A stretch of 64,000 nt of DNA from Acidilobus sp. 7A (GTDB lineage: Archaea; Thermoproteota; Thermoprotei_A; Sulfolobales; Acidilobaceae). The notes below the pieces were generated by a model. That model had not been told where the DNA came from. It searched no databases and saw nothing but the letters and a program-made list of their open reading frames with translations. This document shows, one piece after another, positions 1,268 to 60,807 of this stretch. Each line of letters starts with the position of its first letter. Within the stretch, counting starts at the first letter, position 1. The DNA is taken from assembly GCF_003431325.1 (NCBI RefSeq), contig NZ_CP010515.1, forward strand, positions 62,001 to 126,000. Reading direction: 5' to 3'. A program made the translations under genes and the position numbers.

Positions 1268-1386
1268 AACATTAAACCTTGGGGCCCCTCACCGAGGGGA
1301 CCAACGTGAGGGAGAGGGTCACCTCGAGTGAGGTCGACGTAGAGGTCGAGGTAGGCCAGTCAGCCGTGAGGAGGGCTGAGAGGCAG

Positions 1387-1663
1387 CTGACCTCCTCCCC
1401 GCCCTGAAGGGTAAGGGTTCCCTTAGGGCGGCTCACTGGTTCGCGGCTTACAGCCCTCACCTTCATCACCTCACGGCCGGCGGGCGCATATGCGCCCACC
1501 CCGCTCCGCTCGTCCAGCTGTAGGCCGCGGGCTGGGCCTTCAGCCCATTACCCCTACCCCTCGCCAGGGGTTGCCCCCATCCCCTGGGTCCCAGGGACTT
1601 GGGGATATGTAAGATGTTTATAGCAGCGTTCAGGTCGGCGTTTATGACCTTCCCTGTGCGGGG
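1387..1663 (-). mobile_element. TnpB-element right-end remnant (guide-RNA scaffold)
   Basis: Closely matches 5863-6140, the right end of the complete TnpB element, including the terminal CTGACCTCCTCC block and the end of the tnpB coding region. The match stops abruptly at 1663. The outer end interrupts a short plus-strand open frame starting with GTG near 1306. No clear left end is visible, though GTCACC near 1795 could be a decayed one. It is inactive as a transposon. The scaffold is intact, and the base run beyond the end (minus strand CTGCCTCTCAG) would be the guide if it is transcribed. Confidence 0.75.
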
Positions 1664-1979
1664 CGCTGCAGAGGCGGCCCCACTCGATGGAGCCTCTGCT
1701 GTAGGTGAGGGGGAATCGAGGCCGCCCTGAGAAGCAGGGAGTCATCACCGCGAGGTGGGGGTGCCCCATCTGCTAGGGCGGGACAGTTCACGAAGGCGGA
1801 AAGCGTCACCTTTTAGGGTAAGGGATGGACTGTCTCCTTTGAAATGGTTCAGGCCCCTCCCCCTCTAAACCATTCTCAGTCGCAAAGCAGCGCGCTAGAT
1901 CAACGAGAGCCTTAATAGGGTTTAATTGGCCCAATGGGCCCAGAACTTTTAATAGGCCCGAGGGACCCAGAAAATCTAT

Positions 1980-2046
1980 GGGCCGGGCTCAGCCTGGAAC
2001 GCCTCATCAGATTTCAGTTGCCACGCCGTACTTCATTGCCCGGCCC
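1980..2046 (-). ncRNA. Probable C/D-box sRNA, twin 1
   Basis: On the minus strand a 9-bp terminal stem (GGGCCGGGC with GCCCGGCCC) encloses box-like motifs in C/D order: a weak C box AATGAAGT, D' CTGA, C' TGATGA and D CTGA. D' and C' are separated by four bases, as in archaeal C/D RNAs. The guide spacers are about 12 and 11 bases. A TATA-like CTTAAAA lies 23 bases before GAGAGGGCC. The same layout recurs at 2505-2573 with different spacers. Such RNAs direct 2'-O-methylation with L7Ae, Nop5 and fibrillarin. The imperfect C box and unusually long stem lower confidence. Confidence 0.55.
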
Positions 2047-2235
2047 TCTCGTCTTTTACTTCAAACCATTTTAAGAGTGAGAGGTGGTTATGTCAAGTAG
2101 CGTACACAAGATCAAGGGCTCGGCTAGGTCGCTTCAGGGGCGCAGGCGACTATAGAGGACAGGGAGTACGGAGTGCTATGGCGGTCGTTAGGGTCCTGTG
2201 AGGATGTGAAATCCTACTCTTGACCGTTGGTAAAG

Positions 2236-2278
<43 letters not shown>

Positions 2279-2504: not shown

Positions 2505-2573
2505 GGGCCGGGCTCAACAAAGTCTGGCCTCATCAGACTTCAGCCCCCAAGCCGTGTAATCGCAGCCCGGCCC
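2505..2573 (-). ncRNA. Probable C/D-box sRNA, twin 2
   Basis: Paralogue of the RNA at 1980-2046. It has the same GGGCCGGGC/GCCCGGCCC stem, and the same D'-C' core CTGA-AGTC-TGATGA against CTGA-AATC-TGATGA. The C box (GCGATTA) and D box (TTGA) are degenerate. The spacers differ from twin 1, so the two would have different targets. A TATA-like CCTAAAAG sits at the same distance (23 bases) before GAGAGGGCC. Conserved promoter, stem and boxes with changed spacers argue for functional guide RNAs and not a junk repeat. Confidence 0.5.
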
Positions 2574-2715
2574 TCTCACATTTTTACCTCCAGCCCTTTT
2601 AGGAGCACGTTCCGCGTATCACCGCAGCCGCGTCAACTGCGCGCAAGGCCAAGGGCCCAGCTGGGCGGCTCAAGGGTTAAAATCTCAGGCAACATCCCCA
2701 GGCCAGGTGTAGGGA

Positions 2716-5842: not shown

Positions 5843-6130
5843 CCCGGGACCTCGCCGTGAGTCTGACCTCCTCCCCGCCCTGAAGGGTAAGGGTTCCCTT
5901 AGGGCGGCTCACTGGTTCGCGGCTTACAGCCCTCACCTTCATCACCTCACGGCTAGTGGGTGCGGTAAGCGCCCACCCCGCTCCGCTCGTCCAGCGGTAG
6001 GCCGCGGGCTGGGCCTTCAGCCCTTTACCCCTATCCCTCGCCAGGGGTTGCCCCATCCCCTGGGTCCCAGGGACTTGGGGATATGTAAGATGTTTATAGC
6101 AGCGTTCAGGTCGGCGTTTATGACCTTCCC
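5843..6130 (-). ncRNA. Predicted TnpB guide RNA (omega/reRNA) with 20-base guide
   Basis: In TnpB systems the guide RNA is transcribed across the end of tnpB and the right end, and its 3' guide is the sequence just outside the element. Here the 3' part of tnpB plus the 154-base non-coding right end (5863-6016) is strongly conserved among copies at 1387, 8777 and 12452. It is full of pairable segments, for example CCCCTGGGTCCCAGGG. The guide would be the minus-strand bases at 5862-5843, starting ACTCACGGCG. The 5' boundary is a guess. Confidence 0.5.
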
Positions 6131-7189
6131 TGTGCGGGGACACCTGAACAGGCCACGCCTAATTCGCCCACCCTCGTGGGCCTCCCCGCACAGGGAGCAG
6201 GTCCTGGAGGTGTTGGCCTCACTTACCTTAACAACTTTAATTCCCAGCTCCTCGCCTACCTCCTCAAGGCGCCTGATAACATAGCTGTAGTTCCAGAAGT
6301 TCACGGTGAGCTTGTTGCCGTGATCCCTAGAGATCTCTTTAGGGTAGCCTACGACAACTTCACCCACGCCCTTCCCCTTCAGCTCCTCCATTACCCTCCT
6401 GGCCATGCTATTTAACGCGTGCCTCAGGAACCTCCTCCTTTTGTCGTAGAGCAGCCTGAGCCCCCTGCTCCCCCTCTGCCCGTGCCTTGCCAGGACCTTC
6501 TGGGCCCTGGCTATCCTCTTGCTGTAACTCTCGTACTGGGAGAGGACGCCGCCGCCCTTGAAGAGGTACCAGGTGCCGTCCTCAACGTAAACCGTGGCTA
6601 AGTTAACGATCCCTAGGTCGATGGAGGCCCTAAGCCTGTCCTCTGTCCTCGCGTTGTTCTCAACTTCAACTGGAATAAAGGCGTACCAGGCCCTCCTGGC
6701 CTCGTCATAAAATATCTCCAGCCTGCCCTGCTTCCCACGCCACTTGAGCCTCCCCTTAAACCCCAGGGCCAGACCAAAGTCCTTGAGGTAAATGACCCTC
6801 CTGCCCTCGTCCACCTCATAGCGGTCGTTCCTAATCAAAACTGTCAGCCTGTACTTCCCGCCCTCGCCCTTCCAGTAGCCTGGAGGCCTCAGCCTGAGCC
6901 ACCTCGGCAGCCTCCCCTCCTTTTTCTCCTTAACTAAGGAGAAGAAGCCCCTCCAGGCCTCTGCGTTCTTCCTGGCGACCTGTTGCGCGTTAACCTTCAG
7001 CACGTGCTTGTACTTTTCATACACCTCTTTTTCTGTCCTGTTGAAATCTATCCTTCTCCCCTCCTTGAACTGCTGCGCCCTCAGCCAGTTCACCTCGTTC
7101 CAGCACTTAGCTGTGGCTATGGCAAGCTCCCTCAGCCTCTCACGCGTCCCCTTGTCAACTACCAGCTTGACCACGTTAGCTCTTCTCAT
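6017..7189 (-). CDS. tnpB: TnpB RNA-guided nuclease (IS605 OrfB family)
   Basis: A 390-residue TnpB. The order is an N-terminal helical region with KCWNEVNWLR, a beta-rich recognition part, the RuvC-I strand SIDLGIVNLATV with its catalytic Asp, then VVVGYPKEI at the RuvC-II position, a zinc-ribbon-like TCSLCGEAHEGGR...FRCPRTG, and RuvC-III INADLNAAINIL with its Asp. The RuvC-II strand lacks the usual Glu (Gly instead), and the second zinc pair has only one Cys. Both features occur in an archaeal TnpB subgroup as I remember it; an alternative Glu (VSEANTS) may serve. ATG 7189 overlaps the upstream RHH ORF. Confidence 0.92.
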   Translation of the reverse strand: MRRANVVKLVVDKGTRERLRELAIATAKCWNEVNWLRAQQFKEGRRIDFNRTEKEVYEKYKHVLKVNAQQVARKNAEAWRGFFSLVKEKKEGRLPRWLRLRPPGYWKGEGGKYRLTVLIRNDRYEVDEGRRVIYLKDFGLALGFKGRLKWRGKQGRLEIFYDEARRAWYAFIPVEVENNARTEDRLRASIDLGIVNLATVYVEDGTWYLFKGGGVLSQYESYSKRIARAQKVLARHGQRGSRGLRLLYDKRRRFLRHALNSMARRVMEELKGKGVGEVVVGYPKEISRDHGNKLTVNFWNYSYVIRRLEEVGEELGIKVVKVSEANTSRTCSLCGEAHEGGRIRRGLFRCPRTGKVINADLNAAINILHIPKSLGPRGWGNPWRGIGVKG

Positions 7190-7319
7190 GCCTACACCTC
7201 CTGTACTCCTCGATGAGCCTTGTTATCACGTCGTCGTAGGTCTCCCTGGGGTGAACCTTCAGCCTGTTCAGCTCCTCCTTTGTCTCCTTCCTGACCCTTA
7301 TGGGCTCAGTGACGGGCAC
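7176..7319 (-). CDS. Small ribbon-helix-helix-like protein inside the TnpB element
   Basis: A 47-residue protein starting at GTG 7319 and ending 14 bases inside tnpB. It has the pattern of a VapB/RHH antitoxin-type DNA-binding protein: a short beta strand EPIRVRKETKEELNRLK, then PRETYDDVITRLIEEYRR as the second helix. It lies within the mobile element and is translationally coupled to tnpB, so it may repress the element or regulate tnpB. The RHH assignment rests on pattern only. Confidence 0.6.
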   Translation of the reverse strand: MPVTEPIRVRKETKEELNRLKVHPRETYDDVITRLIEEYRRCRHEKS

Positions 7320-7406
7320 TCTCGCACCAACTACAGAAGTAGCAAACAGTAGCTTAAAAGCCTTAACCCCGCCCCTGGAAGGGGCGGGGCTTGCCTCTCG
7401 CTTCTG

Positions 7407-8602
7407 TCACTCTCTCAGCTCCCTCAGCGCCTCCCCCAGGGCCTCAACGTCCTCCTCCCTGTTGGGGAAGTGGACAGAGGCCCTCATCCCCCAGACCCCA
7501 GCGGCCCCCCTCGCCGTTATCACTACCCCTCTCGCTGCCAGCCTTCTCACGACGTCCTGGGCCTGCCTTATGCTGTCGCCCAGCCTGAAGAGCACTATGC
7601 CTGAGGCCTTCGACTGCTCGGGCGGGCTGAGCACGTCAGCCCTAAGGTCCTCAAGCGCCTCCACAAGGGCCCTCCTCAGCCTCATCACCTGGGCCTCCAC
7701 GCCCTCTATGCTCACCTCGTTTATCAGCGAGGCGGCCGAGGCGGCCGCCCTGAAGGGCATAACTGGTATGAAGCCGCCGTACTCGAACTTGAGGGGTGAG
7801 TCGGCCTTAAACGGGTCAACGTAGAACGGCGCCTTGTTGGGGTCGAGCCAGTAGGCGTCCCAGTCCCTCACGGGGGCGTTGGAGTACCCGGGCCTCGGGG
7901 GCTGGAGCTCCTCAACTGCCCTCCTGCTCACGCACATGCCGCCCAGGCCGAAGGGGGAGAGGAGCCACTTCTGCGTGCCGAAGGCCACGAAGTCCGCCCT
8001 GTCAAGGCCCCTCGGCCTCAGCGCCCCGGCCTGCTGAATGGCGTCAACTACCACGTAGGCCTCAGCCTCGTGGGCCACCTTGGCGAACTCCTCAACGTCA
8101 AGCCTCGCCCCGCTGACCCAGATGACTGAGCTCATCAGGAGGGCCCTGGTCCTCCTGTCAACAACCTCGTAGAGCCTCTCAGGCTCGTAGTCGCCGTCCT
8201 GGGACCTCACTACCCTGACCTCAACCCCCCTGGCCCTGAGCCTGTAGGCCTCCGCGTGAAAGAGGGGGAAGTCCATGTCAAGTATCACTGCGTTGTCCCC
8301 CCTCTGGAAGGGTATGGAGTCAACGGCCTCCTGCACCGCTGAGGTGGTGCTGGTGCCCGTGAAGACCACCTGCTCAGGGCTGCAGCCCAGGAGGGGGCGA
8401 GCTGGGCCCTGGCCTCCTCCTTGGCGGCCCCAACGGCCTCCGGGGAGGACGCGGCCTCGGGCGAGGACTCCACCGCGTCAAGAACTGACCTGACGGCGCC
8501 TACAGCCCTCAGGGGAGGGACGCCAACTGCCGCCCAGTTTAGGTAGTGCCTTGACCTCAGGGAGGGGAACTCGGCCTCGTACGTGGGGCTCACCGGGCTC
8601 AC
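7407..8602 (-). pseudogene. Class V aminotransferase (cysteine-desulfurase-like), frameshifted
   Basis: PLP-dependent fold-type I enzyme. The N-terminal part (8602 down to about 8396) contains RHYLNWAAVGVPP. The rest (from about 8395 down) has VFTGTSTTSAVQEAV, VVVDAIQQAG with the PLP-pairing Asp, and FGTQKWLLSPFG with the PLP lysine. The two parts are in different frames, joined at a run of five Cs near 8391-8396; one more C would restore a single protein of about 398 residues. This is either a true frameshift or a base-calling error. A degraded paralogue of its C-terminus lies at 49978-50390. The stop codon coincides with the TnpB-element target motif. Confidence 0.75.
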
Positions 8603-8679: not shown

Positions 8680-9396
8680 CTCCTTGTCCAGGGCACTATA
8701 GTAGGCACGGCCGTGCTTGGGGTCGTGGGAAATTGCTCCTCGAGGCGCTAAGGCTTGCCCAGAGGTGGTCCCTCAGCTGACCTCCTCCCCGCCCTAAAGG
8801 GCGAGGGCTCCCTCAGGGTGGTTCATAGGTTTGCGGCTTACCGCCCTCACCTTCACAGCCTCATGGCTAGCGGGTTTTACCCCACCCCGCTCCGCTCGTC
8901 CAGCGGTAGGCCGCGGGCTGGGCCTTCAGCCCTTACCCCTACCCCTCGCCAGGGGTTGCCCTCGACCCCTCCCAGCTCCCAGGGACTCGGGGATATGCAG
9001 GGCCCCTATTGGGGCATCCCCTTGCGGGGACACCATTTGTTCTGTGCAACTTTAAGTGCTCAGAGGTTTTATGTTTTACCCCACCCTTCCAGGGGCGGGG
9101 CTTGCCTCTCGCTTCTGTCAGGCAGGGTAGCAGAGGTGCGGGCCAGCTGAGGGGCCTGGTACCCGTGGTAAGCGCAATGGTGGCACAGCCGAGCGTGAGG
9201 AGGCTCCACAAGGCCTCCCTCACGGCCCCCTCGCTCTGCCTGGCTAGAGGACCTGCTGGGCTCAAGCCAGGACCCGAAGGAGGCGGCTGTGCTGTCAAAG
9301 ATCGACGACGCCGTGAGGGACCTGATGATAGTCTTCTCCGCAATACTGTGCTCGGCGGTGCTCAGCGAGGACTACCTTCACGCAGAGGGCGCTTAG
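8680..9396 (+). pseudogene. PhoU-like regulator remnant interrupted by a miniature element
   Basis: Remains of a paralogue of the AbrB-PhoU gene at 22616. Before the insert, QGTIVGTAVLGVVGN then LLLEALRLAQRW match QGTVVGTALLGVVGN and the following helix, with one frameshift. After the insert, VAQPSVRRLH and KIDDAVRD...FSAILCSAVLSEDYL match the C-terminus. Removing 8777-9116 rejoins the reading frame across LRSGRVAEVRAS without loss or duplication. The N-terminal AbrB half is missing, and a stop plus a frameshift follow the insert, so this is a dead gene. Confidence 0.7.
8777..9116 (-). mobile_element. 340-base miniature TnpB element (MITE-like)
   Basis: Has the right end and scaffold of the TnpB element (CTGACCTCCTCC at 8777) and its left end (CTTGCCTCTCGCTTCT up to 9116). 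Almost all of tnpB is replaced by about 85 bases that include CCCCTATTGGGGCATCCCC. Exactly the same deletion junction is found in the copy at 12452-12794. The flanking motif on the sense strand is TGAC. It must be moved by proteins supplied in trans. Confidence 0.8.
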
Positions 9397-11446: not shown

Positions 11447-12863
11447 TCAGCCCCCGAATGCCTTCCCTATGAGGGGCTCAGAGGGGCAGTAGCCCCTGTC
11501 CGTCTTCACTATCCACGAGGAGTCCATGAGCTGGGTGAGGTAGTTGCTCAGCTCGGAGTCGCTGACCCTGGCCCCCTCGCTGGCCTCGAGGGCCCTCCTG
11601 ATCTCTGACCAGGCGGCGCACCTGGCTATAGTCCTCATTATTGCGAGGTACCTCTCCCTCGCCACGTACCTTGTCCTCAGGAAGCTCTCGAACTCCTCCC
11701 TTATGAGGCCAAGGGCCGTCCTCAGCGTCCTCTCAAGGGCCCTGCCGAGGTCCCTGCCCTGGCCGTAGTAGTAGCCGAAGTAGGTGAGCCAGCCCGGTAT
11801 GCCGCCAATCGCGTCGTAGACAGTGTCGTACTTCCTGAACTCCACCCCCAGCTCGCTGAGGCCTAGCCTGAGGAACTGCTCTGCCATCTCCCTGCTAAAC
11901 GGCTTGAGCTCCACCTCGTTCATTGCCCTCCCGTAGAGGGGCGACCTGGGGTCCTCTACGCCCAGGTACCTGTAGAGGAGGCCCATCTTTGAGCCGCTGA
12001 GCACAACCCTGACCCTCCTGAGGTTGTCAAAGGAGTAGGCGAGGGCGGGCAGCAGGTTGGCCCCCCTCATGTTTATGAGCTCCTGGGCCTCGTCAATAAC
12101 AAATACCACCCTGTCCTCTGCCCAGTCGTTGAGGGCCTCGAACAGCGACGATATGGTGACCCTCTTCCGCCCTCCCCACCTGAGCCTCACGCCGCCCCCC
12201 ATGACCTCAACCCCCTCGACCCTCCTGAGGAGCTCCAGGAGGCCGGGGAACCTGCTGGTGAGCCTGTTGACCTCCCTCTCGAGCTCGACCACGAGGTCCC
12301 TGTAGGAGGCGAAGCCCTTCTCCTCGAACTTCCTGAGGTCCACGTATATGTAGGGCAGGCCGAGCTCGTTAAGGGATATCATGATAACTGAGGACTTGCC
12401 AGTCCTCCTGAGGCCCAGCGCAAGTGTTATGGGGGACGAGAGCGACTTGACAAAACGAAAGGCAAGCCTCGCCCCTTCCAGGGGCGGGGTAAGGCATAAA
12501 GCCCCTGAGCACTTAAAGTTGCACGGGACAAATAGTGTCCCCGCAAGGGGATGCCCCAACAGGGGCCCTACATATCCCCAAGTCCCTGGGACCCAGGGGA
12601 TGGGGGCAACCCCTGGCGAGGGATAGGGGTAAAGGGCTGAAGGCCCAGCCCGCGGCCTACCGCTGGACGAGCGGAGCGGGGTGGGTGCTTACCGCACCCA
12701 CCAGCCGTGAGGTGATGAAGGTGAAGGCGGTAAGCCGCAAACCTATGAACCGCCCTGAGGGAGCCCTCGCCCTTTAGGGTGGGGAGGAGGTCAGCCTCTC
12801 TATCTCCGCCTCCCTGTCGAAGAAGTCCCTCCTAGAAGACTTAGGAGCGGGGTCAAACAGCAA
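11447..12863 (-). pseudogene. Archaeal AAA-type ATPase (Arch_ATPase) split by a miniature element
   Basis: Encodes an archaeal STAND-like ATPase. The N-terminal segment from TTG 12863 reads LFDPAPKSSRRDFFDREAE. After the insertion the frame resumes KSLSSPITLALG then Walker A GLRRTGKSS, Walker B VVFVIDEAQEL and sensor VVLSGSKMG, with a winged-helix-like C-terminus. The insertion at 12452-12794 lies between residue 23 and Walker A. Its removal, keeping TGAC, rejoins the frame as EIER-VKSL. The remaining open frame could start inside the element, but it lacks the conserved N-terminal RRDFFDRE motif. Confidence 0.85.
12452..12794 (+). mobile_element. 343-base miniature TnpB element inserted in an ATPase gene
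   Basis: Plus-strand orientation. The left end AAAACGAAAGGCAAGCC follows TTGAC at 12447-12451, and the right end GGGGAGGAGGTCAG finishes at 12794. It shares the internal deletion junction and most bases with 8777-9116, and its right half matches the full element at 5863. The following bases CCTCTCTATC would be its guide. No coding capacity. Confidence 0.85.
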
Positions 12864-23956: not shown

Positions 23957-24001
23957 AAAACGAAAGGCAGACCTCACCTTTTAAGGCGGGGAGGGGGTCA
24001 G
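23957..24001 (+). repeat. 45-base minimal TnpB-family element at a gene end
   Basis: After TTGAC (23952-23956) comes AAAACGAAAGGCAG (left end), a hairpin CCTCACCTTTTAAGG, then CGGGGAGGGGGTCAG (right end). It has only the two termini. Its last bases supply the TGA stop of the acyl-CoA dehydrogenase gene on the opposite strand, so the native C-terminus of that enzyme was altered by the insertion. Confidence 0.65.
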
Positions 24002-41101: not shown

Positions 41102-42244
41102 ATGAGGATAGCGTTGGTCTACCCGCTCTTCGAGGGGGTTGGTGGGTCTGAGAGGCTAACCCTCGACATGTACAGGGCTCTGAGAGATCTCGGCTACGAG
41201 GTTGACCTCTATACTGCCCACTTGAACGAGGGCGCCTGGCAGGTGCTGACGGATGGCATGGATGACATACCGAGGCCAACTGTTCTCAGGGAGCCGCCTA
41301 TAAACAAGCTCTTCAACAGAGTGCTGATGCTCAGGGGACTCCTGACGGTATCATATCTGGGAAAGCACGCTAAAAATCTTAGACATCGCTATGACTTAAT
41401 CATTGAGACTGAGAGCAACGTACCACTCAAATGGGCTGACGTCTCTTACGTGCACTTCCCGACTGTCGACATTCTGAAGTTCTATTTGGAGCACCAGCAC
41501 AGGTTGCGCCTCTATGAGAGGGCCTACAACTCGCTTGTCATCTGGATGGCCAGGGCGCTCTCAGATGGCACTAGGCCCGTTATGACCAACAGCACCTGGA
41601 CAGCTAATTACATAAGGGAGGCATATAGAAACCAGAGAATATACATTGTTCACCCCCCGGTTAACGTGGAGGAGCTGTCGTCAATAGGCGGCGACAGGGG
41701 CAGGATAGTTCTGACGGTGAGCAGAATGGACTTGGGCAAGAAGGTTACTGAGATCCCAGAGATTGCAAGGCTCGTGCCTGAGGCGGTGTTCTACCTGGTC
41801 GGCAGCACCAGCGTATACTCGGGGCCTGCGATCAGGGAGCTGAAGAGGAGGGCTGAGGGGCTGGGCAACTTCCACCTTGAGACCGACGTGCCAAGGAAAA
41901 GGATAATTGAGCTGATGTCCCAGGCCTCAATATACCTTCACCCTCCCTTCGCCGAGCACTTCGGGGTAGCGATTGCTGAGGCCGCTGCAGCAGGCCTTGT
42001 GCCAGTGGTCTACAGGGACGGGGGTGGGTGGACTGACATAGCCTCAAGGGTGGACCAGGGGCTTGGGTACACGAGCGTTGAGGAGGCTGCCCACATAGTC
42101 AGGTCGTTACTTAACGACGCTGAGAGGCTTAAGGCGCTCTCAACGAGGGCGAGGGAGGTGGCGAAGGGGTTCAGCTACGAAAGGTTCAAGATAAGGCTTA
42201 GCGAGGTAATTAGCTCCCTGAGCCCAGACCTCTCAGCTAAATAG
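41102..42244 (+). CDS. Family 4 glycosyltransferase (copy 1 of an inverted pair)
   Basis: A 380-residue GT-B enzyme. It has MRIALVYPLFEGVGGSERLTLDM at the N-terminus, then VSYVHFPTVD and HPPVNVEELSSIGGDRGR. The donor-binding motif is HPPFAEHFGVAIAEAAAAGL. The layout resembles ALG11-type mannosyltransferases. I prefer ATG 41102 to TTG 41090. It is paralogous to the minus-strand gene at 43961; 41933-42087 is identical, base for base, to the reverse complement of 44118-44272. The flippase gene lies between the two copies. Confidence 0.9.
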   Translation: MRIALVYPLFEGVGGSERLTLDMYRALRDLGYEVDLYTAHLNEGAWQVLTDGMDDIPRPTVLREPPINKLFNRVLMLRGLLTVSYLGKHAKNLRHRYDLIIETESNVPLKWADVSYVHFPTVDILKFYLEHQHRLRLYERAYNSLVIWMARALSDGTRPVMTNSTWTANYIREAYRNQRIYIVHPPVNVEELSSIGGDRGRIVLTVSRMDLGKKVTEIPEIARLVPEAVFYLVGSTSVYSGPAIRELKRRAEGLGNFHLETDVPRKRIIELMSQASIYLHPPFAEHFGVAIAEAAAAGLVPVVYRDGGGWTDIASRVDQGLGYTSVEEAAHIVRSLLNDAERLKALSTRAREVAKGFSYERFKIRLSEVISSLSPDLSAK

Positions 42245-43960: not shown

Positions 43961-45100
43961 CTAACTCTTAGCTTTAGGTCCTGCCAGCTCCTTAATTACT
44001 TCATCAAGCCTCTCCTTAAACCTCTCGTAGCTGAACCCCTTGGCTACCTCCCTGGCCTTGGCCGATAGCTCCTTAAGCCTCCCAGGGTCGTTAAGCAGCG
44101 ACCTTATTATTGATGCGGCCTCCTCAACGCTCGTGTACCCAAGCCCCTGGTCCACCCTTGAGGCTATGTCAGTCCACCCACCCCCGTCCCTGTAGACCAC
44201 TGGCACAAGGCCTGCTGCAGCGGCCTCAGCAATCGCTACCCCGAAGTGCTCGGCGAAGGGAGGGTGAAGGTAAATTGAGGCCTGTGACATGAGCTCGAGG
44301 ATCCTCCTCCTTGGCACGTCGGTCTCAAGGTGGAAGTTGTTTAGACCCTCAGCCCTCTCCTTGAGGACCTCTAGAACGGGCCCTGAGTCAAGTCTTGTAG
44401 ATCCAACTAGGTAGAACTCGGCCTCAGGCACAAGCTTAGCCACCTCCGGGATCTCAGTAACATTCTTGCCCCAGTCTATTCTGCTCACAGTAAGAACTAT
44501 CCTGCCCCTGTCGCCGCCTATTGACGACAGCTCCTCCACGTTAACCGGGGGGTGAACGACGTAGACCCTCTTGCTACCGTATGTCTCCCTTATGTACTTA
44601 GCTGACCAGGTGCTGTTGGTCATCACAGGCTTAGTGTAATCCGCGAGCGCCCTGGCCATCCAGATGACAAGCGAGTTGTAGGCCCTCTCATAGAGGCGCA
44701 ACCTGTGCTGGTGCTCCAATAACTTCAGACTGTCGACAAGCGGGAAGTGCACGTAAGTGGCGTCTGCCCACCTGAACGGCACGCTAATCTGGGTCTCAAT
44801 AACTAGGTCGTAGTGGGGCCTGAGCCTCTCAACGGGTTCCTCTAGGCGCCAAGCAGCTAAGAGCATCCTAAGTAGCTGCGCTTTGCGAAAAATCTTACTG
44901 ATCATAGGTTCCCTGAGGATAATTGGCTCTGGAACATCACTCATGCCATTAGTTATTACATCCCAGGCTCTCTTATCAAAATAGGCCGTATAAAGATCAA
45001 CGTCATGGCCTAGATCCTTCAAGGCTCTGCGCATCTCTAGGAGTAGCCTCTCAGCTCCTCCGGCGCTGAAGAACACCGCGTGGATCAGCGCTACCCTCAC
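43961..45100 (-). CDS. Family 4 glycosyltransferase (copy 2 of an inverted pair)
   Basis: A 379-residue GT-B enzyme starting at ATG 45100 (MRVALIHAVFFSAGGAERLLLEM). It is strongly similar to 41102-42244 along its whole length, with the same HPPVNVEELSSIGGDRGR and HPPFAEHFGVAIAEAAAAGL. Two blocks are identical at DNA level: 155 bases near the donor site, and about 70 bases over HQHRLRLYERAYNSLVIWMA. The N-terminal acceptor halves differ more, so the two may act on different acceptors. Confidence 0.9.
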   Translation of the reverse strand: MRVALIHAVFFSAGGAERLLLEMRRALKDLGHDVDLYTAYFDKRAWDVITNGMSDVPEPIILREPMISKIFRKAQLLRMLLAAWRLEEPVERLRPHYDLVIETQISVPFRWADATYVHFPLVDSLKLLEHQHRLRLYERAYNSLVIWMARALADYTKPVMTNSTWSAKYIRETYGSKRVYVVHPPVNVEELSSIGGDRGRIVLTVSRIDWGKNVTEIPEVAKLVPEAEFYLVGSTRLDSGPVLEVLKERAEGLNNFHLETDVPRRRILELMSQASIYLHPPFAEHFGVAIAEAAAAGLVPVVYRDGGGWTDIASRVDQGLGYTSVEEAASIIRSLLNDPGRLKELSAKAREVAKGFSYERFKERLDEVIKELAGPKAKS

Positions 45101-45624: not shown

Positions 45625-46749
45625 TTGACGGGTCAGCCTTACATCTCAGTCATAGTTACTGCCTACAACAGGAGGAGGTACCTGCCGTTCGCCCTGAGGA
45701 GCCTAGAGGCCCAGATGCTTCCGAGGGATAGGTTTGAAGTAATCGTGGTTAAGAACTTCGAGGACAAGGAGTCTGATGACATAATCTTAAGGAACGGCTG
45801 GAAGGAGGTATATAACAATGACCTCTATCAGGGCAGGATGGTCCTGGCGAGCCTTGAGGAGTCGAGGGGCGAGGTGATAGCCTTTCTTGACGATGACGAC
45901 ATGTATGTCAACAATAGACTTGAGGAGGTCTACAAGGCCTTCACTTCGTTTAAGCGCCTTGTATACTTCCAAAACTCGCAGACGTTAATTGACGAAAATG
46001 GTAATGTGCTTGAGAGGCCCCCGCCTTCTCCCCTTATATCTAAGAACCTTGTCGGAGGAAGCCCTATAGTTGTTGATGTTGATAGGCTGCGCGGGCTCGC
46101 CAAAAGATATAACGTGAGCGTTGCTGACCTGGTACTTAAAGTAAGGGCTGGGGCTGACTTCAACAGCAGCTCACTGGCAGTTAGGAGGCCCGTCTTAGAG
46201 CCTCATGTCCAGCTGCTAAAGAGGCTTCCGATAAGCATAGATAGCTTCGTGTTCGTTAGCTCAGTAAAGGCCGGAGGCCTCATGTACTTCACTGACGAAA
46301 AGCTGACGCTATACAGGGTTCACGGGGCCAGTTTCTCCGCCAACTTCTCCATGCAGCTCGGCGACGTCAGGGCCGCTGAGCTCAGGGCGGCCCTGGGCTA
46401 CCTGAAGTTTGCGGTGGCCTACAGACTCATCAGTGAGGTGCTCGGGGACGACTGCAACTACTACGGCCTTCACTCCCTGTCGACCAGGGCCGGGCTTCAG
46501 ATGCTGCTCAGGCTCGGCCCTCTGCCATCCTGCCTCATGGTAAGCCTAAGGGACCTGGCCAGGGCGCTCAGGTGCTACCTGAGAGGCCCGTGGAGCCTCG
46601 CGGAGTCCGGCCTGCTACCGGCGCTCGTCTCCTTCGCCCTGTACCCCCTGTTCTCCTCCCCCCTGGGCGGGGCGCTCTACAGGCTGGGCCAGTCTGTTTA
46701 CAAGAGGGTTTACTACTCAAAGTACACCAAGCCCAGGCCAAGCTGGTGA
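45625..46749 (+). CDS. Family 2 glycosyltransferase
   Basis: A 374-residue GT-A enzyme. ISVIVTAYNRRRYLPFALRSLE is the nucleotide-binding start, FEVIVVKNFEDKESDD follows, and GEVIAFLDDDDMYVNNRLEE holds the DxD-type acidic motif. The C-terminal 100 residues contain hydrophobic helices. TTG start at 45625. Bases 45832-46319 are identical to 47402-47888 in the next transferase gene except for one deleted C there, a sign of recent gene conversion or duplication. Confidence 0.88.
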   Translation: MTGQPYISVIVTAYNRRRYLPFALRSLEAQMLPRDRFEVIVVKNFEDKESDDIILRNGWKEVYNNDLYQGRMVLASLEESRGEVIAFLDDDDMYVNNRLEEVYKAFTSFKRLVYFQNSQTLIDENGNVLERPPPSPLISKNLVGGSPIVVDVDRLRGLAKRYNVSVADLVLKVRAGADFNSSSLAVRRPVLEPHVQLLKRLPISIDSFVFVSSVKAGGLMYFTDEKLTLYRVHGASFSANFSMQLGDVRAAELRAALGYLKFAVAYRLISEVLGDDCNYYGLHSLSTRAGLQMLLRLGPLPSCLMVSLRDLARALRCYLRGPWSLAESGLLPALVSFALYPLFSSPLGGALYRLGQSVYKRVYYSKYTKPRPSW

Positions 46750-47197: not shown

Positions 47198-48330
47198 TTG
47201 GACCAGCCCTACATCTCGGTCATAGTTACTGCCTACAACAGGAGGAGGTACCTTCCGTTCGCGCTGAGGAGCCTTGAGGCCCAGACGCTTCCGAGGGACA
47301 AATTTGAGGTAGTTGTCGTCAAGAACTTCGAGGACAAGGAGTCTGACAGTATAATATCAAGGAACGGCTGGAAGGACGTCTATAATGATGACTCCTACCA
47401 CGGCAGGATGGTCCTGGCGAGCCTTGAGGAGTCGAGGGGCGAGGTGATAGCCTTTCTTGACGATGACGACATGTATGTCAACAATAGACTTGAGGAGGTC
47501 TACAAGGCCTTCACTTCGTTTAAGCGCCTTGTATACTTCCAAAACTCGCAGACGTTAATTGACGAAAATGGTAATGTGCTTGAGAGGCCCCCGCCTTCTC
47601 CCCTTATATCTAAGAACCTTGTCGGAGGAAGCCCTATAGTTGTTGATGTTGATAGGCTGCGCGGGCTCGCCAAAAGATATAACGTGAGCGTTGCTGACCT
47701 GGTACTTAAAGTAAGGGCTGGGGCTGACTTCAACAGCAGCTCACTGGCAGTTAGGAGGCCGTCTTAGAGCCTCATGTCCAGCTGCTAAAGAGGCTTCCGA
47801 TAAGCATAGATAGCTTCGTGTTCGTTAGCTCAGTAAAGGCCGGAGGCCTCATGTACTTCACTGACGAAAAGCTGACGCTATACAGGGTACATGGGGAGAA
47901 CTGGTCCTACTACGCGGAAATAGCGAGAAGTGGAAGTAATGAAACACGCTTAAAGCGGGCCAGGCCTCTCATACAGGCAATCAAGACTTCTGGACTAATA
48001 GGTTCTATGCTACTCGATGGTAACATCAATAAATATCTATGTCTTGAGAGGCTAAATAGGGGAGCGCTACTACTTTTGCCGCTGCCGGAGCTTGGCACTC
48101 TGCCCCCGGAGCTGAGGCTGAGCCTGTCCGACGTTAAGTTGGCCCTAAGATGCTATAAGGTTGGAGCCGAGGACTTAGTTGATGTGGTCTTTGTCATGGG
48201 AAGCGCCCTTCTTAGCCCTCTCCTCGCATCGCCCAGAGGGAGGCTTGTCATAGGCAAGATAGTGGAGGGCATCGTCAAAGCCCTGACCACGAAAAGATCC
48301 CTAAAAAGAGAAAGAGAGAGTCTAAGATGA
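47198..48330 (+). pseudogene. Family 2 glycosyltransferase, frameshifted paralogue
   Basis: TTG start at 47198 and the same GT-A domain as 45625. The frame breaks at about 47758, where GGCCCGTC of the sister gene is GGCCGTC. It then continues in another frame (FVFVSSVKAGGLMYFTDEKLTLYRVHG) to 48330. The C-terminal part after 47888 is unlike the sister gene and ends DVVFVMGSALLSPLLASPRG with a basic tail. Since the surrounding 488 bases are otherwise identical to 45832-46319, the loss of one C is either very recent or an error. Confidence 0.75.
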
Positions 48331-51033: not shown

Positions 51034-52074
51034 GTGGTGTCCGCAGTGAGGGCAGTCGTCTTTGAAAGGCACGGGGGCCCGGAGGTGCTTCACGAGGCAG
51101 AGCTTCCTGACCCAAGGCCTGCACCTGACGAGGTCGTCATAAGGGTCTCCCACACGTCCCTCAACAGGATAGACGCGCTTATCCGTAAAGGCTACCCTGG
51201 CATAAAGGTGAGGCTCCCCCACGTCCTGGGCTCAGACGTCTTCGGGGTCATAGAGGAGGTGGGAAACAACGTGACACACCTGAGGGAGGGGCAGGGGGTT
51301 ATACTCTCGCCGGTCCACGGCTGCGGCCACTGCAATTACTGCCTCAGCGGCAGGGAGAACATGTGCAGGCTGTGGTCCATGCTCGGCTTCCACGAGGACG
51401 GCTCCTACGCTGAGCTTGTGAAGGCGCCTGCCAGGGTCGCCCTCCCGGCTTCCGGCAGCCCGGAGGAGTTAGGCGCCCTGCCGCTGTCCCTGCTGACCGC
51501 CTACAGGGCGCTCGTCAGCGTAGGCAACGTCTCAAGGGGGCAGGACGTGCTCATATGGGGGGCGACGGGCGGCCTCGGCACGATAGCTGTGCAGGTTGCG
51601 AAGGCTTACGGGGCCAGGGTGATAGCCACCACTCGCAGCGAGGAGAAGGAGTGGGTCCTCAAGCAGGCCGGGGCCGACCTCATAGTTAACACGAGCGAGG
51701 AGGACGCAGTCTCAAGGGTCATGGAGTTCACCGACGGCAAGGGTGCCGACCTTGTTATCGACTACGTGGTGGGCACGACCCTCGACAGAAGCCTTGAGGC
51801 CCTAGCCGGTGGGGGCACCATAGTGGTCTTCGGCTACCTGGGCGGCCCTGTCAAGGAGCTCAACTGGAACAGGTTCTACCTCAAGCACGCAAGGGTGGTG
51901 GGCACCCACACGGGCAGCCCGTGGGAGATGGAGAGGGCCCTCGAGCTCCACAGGCAGGGCCTGGTGAGGCCGATCATAACGAGGAGGATGGGGCTCTCGC
52001 AGGCGGCCGAGGCCCACAGGGTAATGGAGGAGGGCTCCCTCGTGGGCAAGCTGTCGATGAAGGTCGACCTGTAA
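51034..52074 (+). CDS. Zinc-type alcohol dehydrogenase / quinone oxidoreductase (MDR)
   Basis: A 346-residue medium-chain dehydrogenase. The structural zinc lobe GCGHCNYCLSGRENMC has all four Cys. The Rossmann motif is WGATGGLGTIAVQVAKAYGARVIAT. The catalytic zinc Cys of true alcohol dehydrogenases is replaced (HTSLNRIDALIRKG), as in quinone reductases, so zinc-free NADPH oxidoreductase chemistry is possible. GTG 51034. The stop TAA is formed where a short TnpB-family element begins. Confidence 0.9.
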   Translation: MVSAVRAVVFERHGGPEVLHEAELPDPRPAPDEVVIRVSHTSLNRIDALIRKGYPGIKVRLPHVLGSDVFGVIEEVGNNVTHLREGQGVILSPVHGCGHCNYCLSGRENMCRLWSMLGFHEDGSYAELVKAPARVALPASGSPEELGALPLSLLTAYRALVSVGNVSRGQDVLIWGATGGLGTIAVQVAKAYGARVIATTRSEEKEWVLKQAGADLIVNTSEEDAVSRVMEFTDGKGADLVIDYVVGTTLDRSLEALAGGGTIVVFGYLGGPVKELNWNRFYLKHARVVGTHTGSPWEMERALELHRQGLVRPIITRRMGLSQAAEAHRVMEEGSLVGKLSMKVDL

Positions 52075-52150
52075 AAGCGAAAGGCGGTAAGCCGCGAACC
52101 AGTGAGCCGCCCTGAGGGGCCCTCGCTCTTTAGGGTGGGGAGGAGGTCAG
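52074..52150 (+). repeat. 77-base TnpB-family miniature at the adh 3' end
   Basis: The left end AAAGCGAAAGGCGGTAAGCCG follows CTGTA. The right end has the terminal hairpin and GGGGAGGAGGTCAG to 52150. It matches about 70 bases of the right end of the 12452 element. It lacks the large internal scaffold. Confidence 0.65.

Positions 52151-60465: not shown

Positions 60466-60807
<342 letters not shown>

What the first reader, a model, noticed from the sequence alone, without database searches (positions are those of the whole stretch)
5843..7405. TnpB guide-RNA scaffold family with eight copies and different guides
Right ends at 1387, 2236, 5863, 8777, 12794, 24001, 52150 and 60764 all finish in GAGGTCAG or a close variant, each followed by a different sequence. 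In TnpB biology that outside sequence is the guide. The three long partial copies keep the whole scaffold though they lack tnpB, so they could supply guide RNAs in trans to the one TnpB here.
Basis: partly seen in the sequence, partly recalled or inferred. Interest (0 to 1): 0.75.

Follow-up and report, generated by a model that had tools for sequence, protein, structure and literature searches.

The report
TnpB guide-RNA copies lacking the nuclease
In a heat- and acid-loving archaeon, one RNA-guided DNA-cutting gene (TnpB) sits among shrunken copies of its own mobile element; about ten of these keep the folded guide-RNA part without the gene and could steer the cutter to other sites, whereas the many tiny 39-45-letter copies are leftovers too short to do so.

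Summary
All eight right ends exist at the stated coordinates and each is followed by different DNA, but they are not eight scaffold copies. Four (E1, E3, E4, E5) carry the full ~225-nt scaffold; E7 keeps 78 nt; E6 is a 45-nt terminal-only remnant of the same element (target TGAC). E2 and E8 are 39-nt terminal-only remnants of a second TnpB element (target TTAC). Genome-wide there are 65 such right ends (E<=1e-4), 11 with the long scaffold, and one intact cognate TnpB. Its RuvC triad is complete in the rearranged form (D191/E324/D360). Precise empty sites in sister genomes prove insertion without target duplication. The sister genome holds E5's predicted target intact: TTGAC plus 24/24 guide bases, in two copies. 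The scaffold shows strong compensatory base changes, also among tnpB-less copies. No TnpA (Y1) gene was found in any of four genus genomes. Best reading: IS1341-type elements and their PATE/"ghost" derivatives. Trans guide supply by the long copies is plausible, untested, and has precedents (Fanzor ghost omegaRNAs; archaeal PATEs). The micro-elements cannot plausibly act as guides.

The parts
5863..7405 (-). E3: complete IS1341-type (tnpB-only) element; right end at 5863, left end at 7405
   Evidence: Element boundaries recur at another site in G001 (G001:C2, 93% over 5863-7411); left-end hairpin shared with E4 and E5
7406..7409 (-). TGAC target/TAM flanking the left end of E3
   Evidence: Sequence; same TGAC/TTGAC/CGAC at E4, E5 and other copies
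6017..7189 (-). tnpB, 390 aa; RuvC D191, alternative E324, D360
   Evidence: PF01385 and PF07282; NF040570 guided_TnpB 164.5 bits, cut-off 100; triad conserved in relatives
5863..6087 (-). guide-RNA (reRNA/omegaRNA) scaffold, overlapping the last ~23 codons of tnpB
   Evidence: Covariation: 18 of 53 pairs changed on both sides, 0/500 shuffles reach it
5843..5862 (-). predicted guide of E3 (ACTCACGGCGAGGTCCCGGG)
   Evidence: Position just outside the right end; inference from TnpB biology
1387..1663 (-). E1: partial copy with full scaffold and the 3' end of tnpB; left part lost
   Evidence: 89-97% match to E3 and G001 copies; an element also sits at this site in G001 with the same guide, 1 difference in 30
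1367..1386 (-). predicted guide of E1
   Evidence: conserved in G001
8777..9116 (-). E4: 340-bp tnpB-less element (PATE) with both ends and full scaffold
   Evidence: Precisely absent from G001
8757..8776 (-). predicted guide of E4; 24/24 bases intact at the empty site in G001, flanked by CGAC
12452..12794 (+). E5: 343-bp tnpB-less element (PATE) with both ends and full scaffold; interrupts an ATPase gene
   Evidence: Precisely absent from G001; joined flanks give one ORF
12795..12814 (+). predicted guide of E5; TTGAC plus 24/24 bases intact in two copies in G001
23957..24001 (+). E6: 45-nt terminal-only element, TGAC family (left end fused to right end through one hairpin)
52073..52150 (+). 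E7: 78-nt internally deleted element: left-end stub plus the last part of the scaffold
2236..2274 (-). E2: 39-nt terminal-only element of the TTAC family
   Evidence: Precisely absent from G001:C1:364859-365012; left end matches longer TTAC-family elements
60764..60802 (-). E8: 39-nt terminal-only element of the TTAC family
1664..1791 (+). orphan right end of a third IS605-type family (ends TTCAC), abutting E1
   Evidence: At least five copies in G007, diverging just past this point

Best explanation
The locus is an IS200/IS605-superfamily, IS1341-type (tnpB-only) insertion sequence with its non-autonomous derivatives. Shown: the element inserts 3' of TGAC without target duplication. Its right end is the 3' boundary of a ~225-nt structured guide-RNA scaffold that overlaps the end of tnpB, so each insertion places the old target sequence next to the scaffold as a guide. 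Deletion of the core gave ~340-bp copies (PATEs) that keep both ends and the full scaffold. Recombination between the near-identical left and right hairpins is the likely origin of the 45-nt (TGAC family) and 39-nt (TTAC family) terminal-only remnants. Inferred: the long tnpB-less copies (E1, E4, E5 and about seven elsewhere in the genome) are transcribed, bind the single intact TnpB in trans, and direct it to cut the empty allele. That would restore or spread the copy by homologous repair. The terminal-only remnants lack the scaffold and give no guide.
For: TnpB family membership and full RuvC triad D191/E324/D360 in the alternative-glutamate arrangement, with the TnpB/Cas12f fold in the model. 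Exact empty sites for E4 and E5 in G001 and for the micro-elements E2 and 12682 in G001 and G003. E5's TAM plus 24-nt guide intact in G001, twice. Scaffold covariation in 22 copies: 18 pairs changed on both sides vs 8.8 expected, 67 cells vs 27, 0/500 shuffles, slid controls far lower. Among 10 tnpB-less copies: 96.1% of cells paired, 17 double-changed cells vs 7.5, 0/500. One intact cognate TnpB and 11 long scaffolds. Guides have no convincing second match in the host genome, as expected for a tolerated nuclease. An archaeal TnpB accepts reRNA from a second plasmid (PMC11043419); Fanzor 'ghost' omegaRNAs are active with the nuclease supplied in trans (PMC10432273).
Against: No transcript data. 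Long scaffolds persist in G002 and G019, where no cognate TnpB was found, so TnpB is not needed to keep them for some time. G001's tnpB is frameshifted. The copies are young and related, so part of the covariation may have arisen while tnpB was still present or been spread by gene conversion; in helix 2 some copies are mismatched recombinants. The second zinc-finger CxxC is CxxT. No TnpA was found in the genus, so the source of mobility is unexplained.
Confidence: 0.6

Rival explanations
1. The tnpB-less copies are only decaying transposon remnants (PATEs/MITEs). Their scaffold sequence is a passenger, conserved because the copies are young and because the terminal hairpins serve ssDNA transposition; nothing is loaded into TnpB.
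For: Terminal-only and internally deleted copies dominate. Scaffolds occur without cognate TnpB in G002 and G019. G001's tnpB is broken. Archaeal PATEs were described as degenerate elements (PMC3119063).
Against: Compensatory changes in internal helices far from the ends, kept among tnpB-less copies; indels in the former tnpB-coding part of the scaffold while pairing is kept; E5 has no broken pair.
Confidence: 0.35
2. The short right ends act as DNA or RNA signals, such as REP-like repeats or transcription terminators between convergent genes, rather than as transposon remnants.
For: E6, E7 and E8 lie at the 3' ends of genes, between or close to convergent genes.
Against: Precise empty sites for 39-nt copies in sister genomes; constant lengths (17 copies of 39 nt, 4 of 40 nt, 6 of 45 nt) with a fixed target tetranucleotide; full-length left ends of the same kind exist.
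Confidence: 0.06
3. The TnpB has become a nuclease-dead RNA-guided repressor (TldR-like) that uses the standalone guides to silence genes.
For: The canonical RuvC-II glutamate is replaced (VVVGYPKE).
Against: An invariant glutamate sits six residues before the zinc finger (E324), as in alternative-E TnpBs and Fanzors. The protein still lies in a mobile element with exact ends. Guides have no second host target.
Confidence: 0.04

Closest known systems
PATEs of Haloquadratum walsbyi (palindrome-associated transposable elements; PMC3119063)
   Same: tnpB-less archaeal derivatives of IS605-type elements with near-terminal palindromes and no target duplication; core deletion between the two palindromes leaving tiny terminal-only copies; recent insertions although no intact TnpA explains them
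   Different: Here terminal-only copies are 39 and 45 bp instead of 52 bp. The ~340-bp copies are shown to keep a covarying guide-RNA scaffold, and the 2011 work predates the guide-RNA role
'Ghost' omegaRNA loci of SpuFz1 Fanzor (PMC10432273)
   Same: Many loci with the guide-RNA scaffold and element ends but without the nuclease gene; proposed to serve the nuclease in trans; Fanzors also have the alternative glutamate
   Different: Eukaryotic and tested in human cells; here archaeal, untested, and E5 is paired with an intact empty target in a sister species
SisTnpB7 of Saccharolobus islandicus (PMC11043419)
   Same: Archaeal IS605 TnpB, scaffold overlapping the tnpB end, guide outside the right end, works with reRNA from a second plasmid
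   Different: TAM TTTAA and right end TTCAC against TGAC and GGTCAG here; a different TnpB
TnpB of ISDra2 (PMC8612924)
   Same: RNA-guided TnpB whose guide is the flank of the right end
   Different: Canonical RuvC-II glutamate and resident TnpA in ISDra2 (family knowledge); here alternative glutamate and no TnpA

Membership tests
RNA-guided TnpB (OMEGA) nuclease | TnpB family profile | tested here: met
   NF040570 164.5 bits, cut-off 100; PF01385, PF07282; fold match to TnpB and Cas12f structures
RNA-guided TnpB (OMEGA) nuclease | Complete RuvC D-E-D triad | tested here: met
   D191, E324 (ExxxxxxCxxC position described in PMC10711439) and D360, conserved in relatives; the canonical E position is G
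RNA-guided TnpB (OMEGA) nuclease | C-terminal zinc finger with two CxxC | tested here: inconclusive
   First CxxC present (C331-C334), second is CxxT
RNA-guided TnpB (OMEGA) nuclease | Structured scaffold ending at the right end, guide outside | tested here: met
   Covariation; guide equals the intact target in the sister genome
RNA-guided TnpB (OMEGA) nuclease | Scaffold RNA expressed and used for cutting | not testable with these tools
   No transcriptome or biochemistry available
IS200/IS605 superfamily, IS1341-type | Insertion 3' of a fixed short target, no target duplication, subterminal hairpins at both ends | tested here: met
   Empty sites; hairpins
IS200/IS605, autonomous | Y1 transposase TnpA | tested here: not met
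   No PF01797 in the own genome or three congeners; 3 of 40 order genomes have one
PATE | No transposase gene, near-terminal palindromes, no target duplication, terminal-only forms | tested here: met
   E4, E5; 39- and 45-nt copies
Ghost/standalone omegaRNA | Intact scaffold without nuclease gene | tested here: met
   E1, E4, E5 with 0-2 broken pairs of 53
Ghost/standalone omegaRNA | Active with the nuclease in trans | not testable with these tools
   Needs an assay
TldR (nuclease-dead TnpB repressor) | Degraded RuvC triad | tested here: not met
   Triad retained in alternative form

The most novel reading that the evidence does not exclude
One alternative-glutamate TnpB serves a dispersed set of about ten standalone guide RNAs in trans. 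Their scaffolds are under selection for RNA structure, so tnpB-less elements are retained or homed at their sites by a shared nuclease, in a genus with no detectable TnpA.
Probability: 0.4. Interest if true: 0.7.

Novelty: new member of a known kind. Interest (0 to 1): 0.45.

Why it matters
It gives a natural archaeal test bed for whether tnpB-less transposon copies use a shared nuclease. It supplies a matched pair of alleles: E5 in one species, and its intact TAM-flanked target in a sister species. It also repeats, in a second archaeal group, the old puzzle that such elements have moved recently where no TnpA gene is found, and it shows how full elements collapse to 39-45-bp remnants through their own hairpins.

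Tried and rejected
Eight equal scaffold copies: rejected, only four carry it. Dead TnpB: at first suspected because the canonical RuvC-II glutamate is missing, rejected after finding conserved E324 in the alternative position. Known RNA family: no Rfam match in the window at gathering thresholds. Self-targeting guides: 15 guides against the whole genome gave only their own loci; the best other match was 17 bases without the guide start. Empty site for E3 itself: only one flank matched in G001, unresolved. Scaffold decay in TnpB-less genomes compared with the own genome: suggestive only (4.25 vs 2.3 broken pairs, p=0.07, four copies). Folding of E3 alone is only weakly better than shuffles (z -2.1), so the case rests on covariation. 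The structure model has low confidence near the active site (pTM 0.50), so no distances were measured.

Full report
CHECK OF THE OBSERVATION. A covariance model of the right-end hairpin finds exactly these eight strongly in the window and 65 in the 1,539,049-bp genome at E<=1e-4 (the scorer looks at the best 150 candidates only). The model was trained on these ends, so the independent evidence is the 14-mer count against its reversed control, 165 vs 39, and BLAST with the E3 scaffold. Every end is followed by a different sequence.

WHAT THE EIGHT ARE. E3 (5863-7405, minus strand) is a complete element with tnpB. E1 (1387-1663) is a 3' fragment of the same element. E4 (8777-9116) and E5 (12452-12794) are ~340-bp copies with both ends and no tnpB. 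E7 (52073-52150) keeps a left-end stub and the last part of the scaffold. E6 (23957-24001) is TGAC followed by a 45-nt fusion of left and right ends through one hairpin. E2 and E8 are TTAC followed by 39 nt. The TTAC left end is that of a second element of ~1.4 kb with a different TnpB (NF040570 126 bits) and a small upstream zinc-ribbon ORF. Copies in the own genome at 325, 386 and 561 kb carry frameshifts. So the eight are four scaffold copies, one truncated copy and three terminal-only remnants from two families that share the last ~30 nt.

EMPTY SITES. In congener G001 the flanks of E5 are contiguous: GCGACTTGAC|CCTCTCTATC. The 24 bases after TTGAC are identical to E5's predicted guide, and this site occurs twice there. 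The flanks of E4 are contiguous too: CTCGAC|CTGAGGGACC, 24/24 guide bases. The 39-nt E2 is absent from G001, and the 40-nt copy at 12682 is absent from G003. There is no target duplication. E5 interrupts an ATPase gene; joining the flanks gives a single 363-codon frame.

THE NUCLEASE. The 390-aa protein passes the NCBIfam guided_TnpB cut-off and matches Cas12f in sequence and TnpB/Cas12f in fold. The canonical RuvC-II glutamate is glycine (VVVGYP), but D191, E324 and D360 are conserved in relatives. E324 stands six residues before the first zinc-finger cysteine, the alternative position described for Fanzors and some TnpBs (PMC10711439). The second CxxC is CxxT. It is the only intact cognate TnpB in the genome.

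THE SCAFFOLD. The ~225-nt region from ACATATCCCC to GGTCAG aligns across Acidilobus-group copies and tnpB loci of other archaea. In a 53-pair structure derived from this alignment, 95.2% of cells pair, 18 pairs have changes on both sides (shuffled mean 8.8), and 67 cells do (27.4), with 0/500 shuffles reaching these values; slid controls pair at 38-50%. Among ten copies without tnpB: 96.1% paired, 8 double-changed pairs (4.3), 17 cells (7.5; 0/500). One clean example is GGGCUG...CAGCCC against GGGCCG...CGGCCC. Caveats: copies are related, the structure was derived from the same set, and helix 2 has recombinant mismatches. AT-rich promoter-like boxes follow the left-end hairpin in E3 and in the ~340-bp copies; this is inference only.

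MOBILITY. No Y1 transposase is found in the own genome or in three congeners, and only in 3 of 40 genomes of the order. Right-end counts are 65, 18, 7 and 0 in the four congeners. The contig length of G003 (1,496,453) suggests Acidilobus saccharovorans, from memory, so the window is probably from an Acidilobus relative. The left and right hairpins are nearly identical, so deletion between them yields the constant 39- or 45-nt remnants. This is what was described for Haloquadratum PATEs, with 52-bp terminal-only forms and recent insertions despite broken TnpA genes (PMC3119063).

FUNCTION. Guides of 15 elements have no convincing second target in the host genome. For an archaeal TnpB, reRNA from a second plasmid works and about 176 nt are needed (PMC11043419). 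Fanzor ghost omegaRNAs are active with the nuclease supplied in trans (PMC10432273). By analogy the long tnpB-less copies could guide TnpB to the empty allele and help retain or spread themselves; the 39-78-nt copies could not. Expression, loading and cutting are not shown. The persistence of scaffolds in G002 and G019, where no cognate TnpB was found, weakens the case for strong dependence.

VERDICT. It is a new member of a known kind, with an unusually good natural allele pair for a direct test.

Noticed in passing
window 1664-1791 (+); L299-L303: Orphan right end of a third IS605-type family ending in TTCAC, abutting truncated E1; at least five copies in G007, each with different sequence beyond it.
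   Followed up: partly
window 1981-2055 and 2507-2578 (+): Two copies of a ~70-nt unit with a 9-base terminal stem GGGCCGGGC/GCCCGGCCC, conserved CATCAGAYTTCAG inside and a T-run after it; looks like a small RNA or terminator repeat, no Rfam match.
   Followed up: partly
window 23957-24001: E6's right end provides the stop codon (TGA at 23998-24000) of the acyl-CoA dehydrogenase gene on the minus strand.
   Followed up: partly
window 12452-12794; L118: E5 interrupts an ATPase_2/MCM_C gene. G001 has tandem copies of this gene region with two intact E5 target sites.
   Followed up: partly
L119 (G001:C2:128064-129219): The only close TnpB relative in the sister genome is split by a frameshift around residue 110.
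   Followed up: yes
G000:C1:561299-562712, 386334-387749, 324011-325427: TTAC-family elements with a divergent TnpB and a small upstream zinc-ribbon ORF (CPYCGYVWDYKGKK...CPNC) of unknown role.
   Followed up: partly
G000:C1:256096 (-): A right end fused directly to the internal region of the 340-bp element: another internal-deletion form.
   Followed up: no
window 41486-42212 and 43993-44719: A 727-nt inverted repeat, 87% complementary, 1780 nt apart.
   Followed up: no
window 45634-46327 and 47204-47896: Direct repeat spaced 1570 nt with segments of 91-99% identity: a recent tandem duplication.
   Followed up: no
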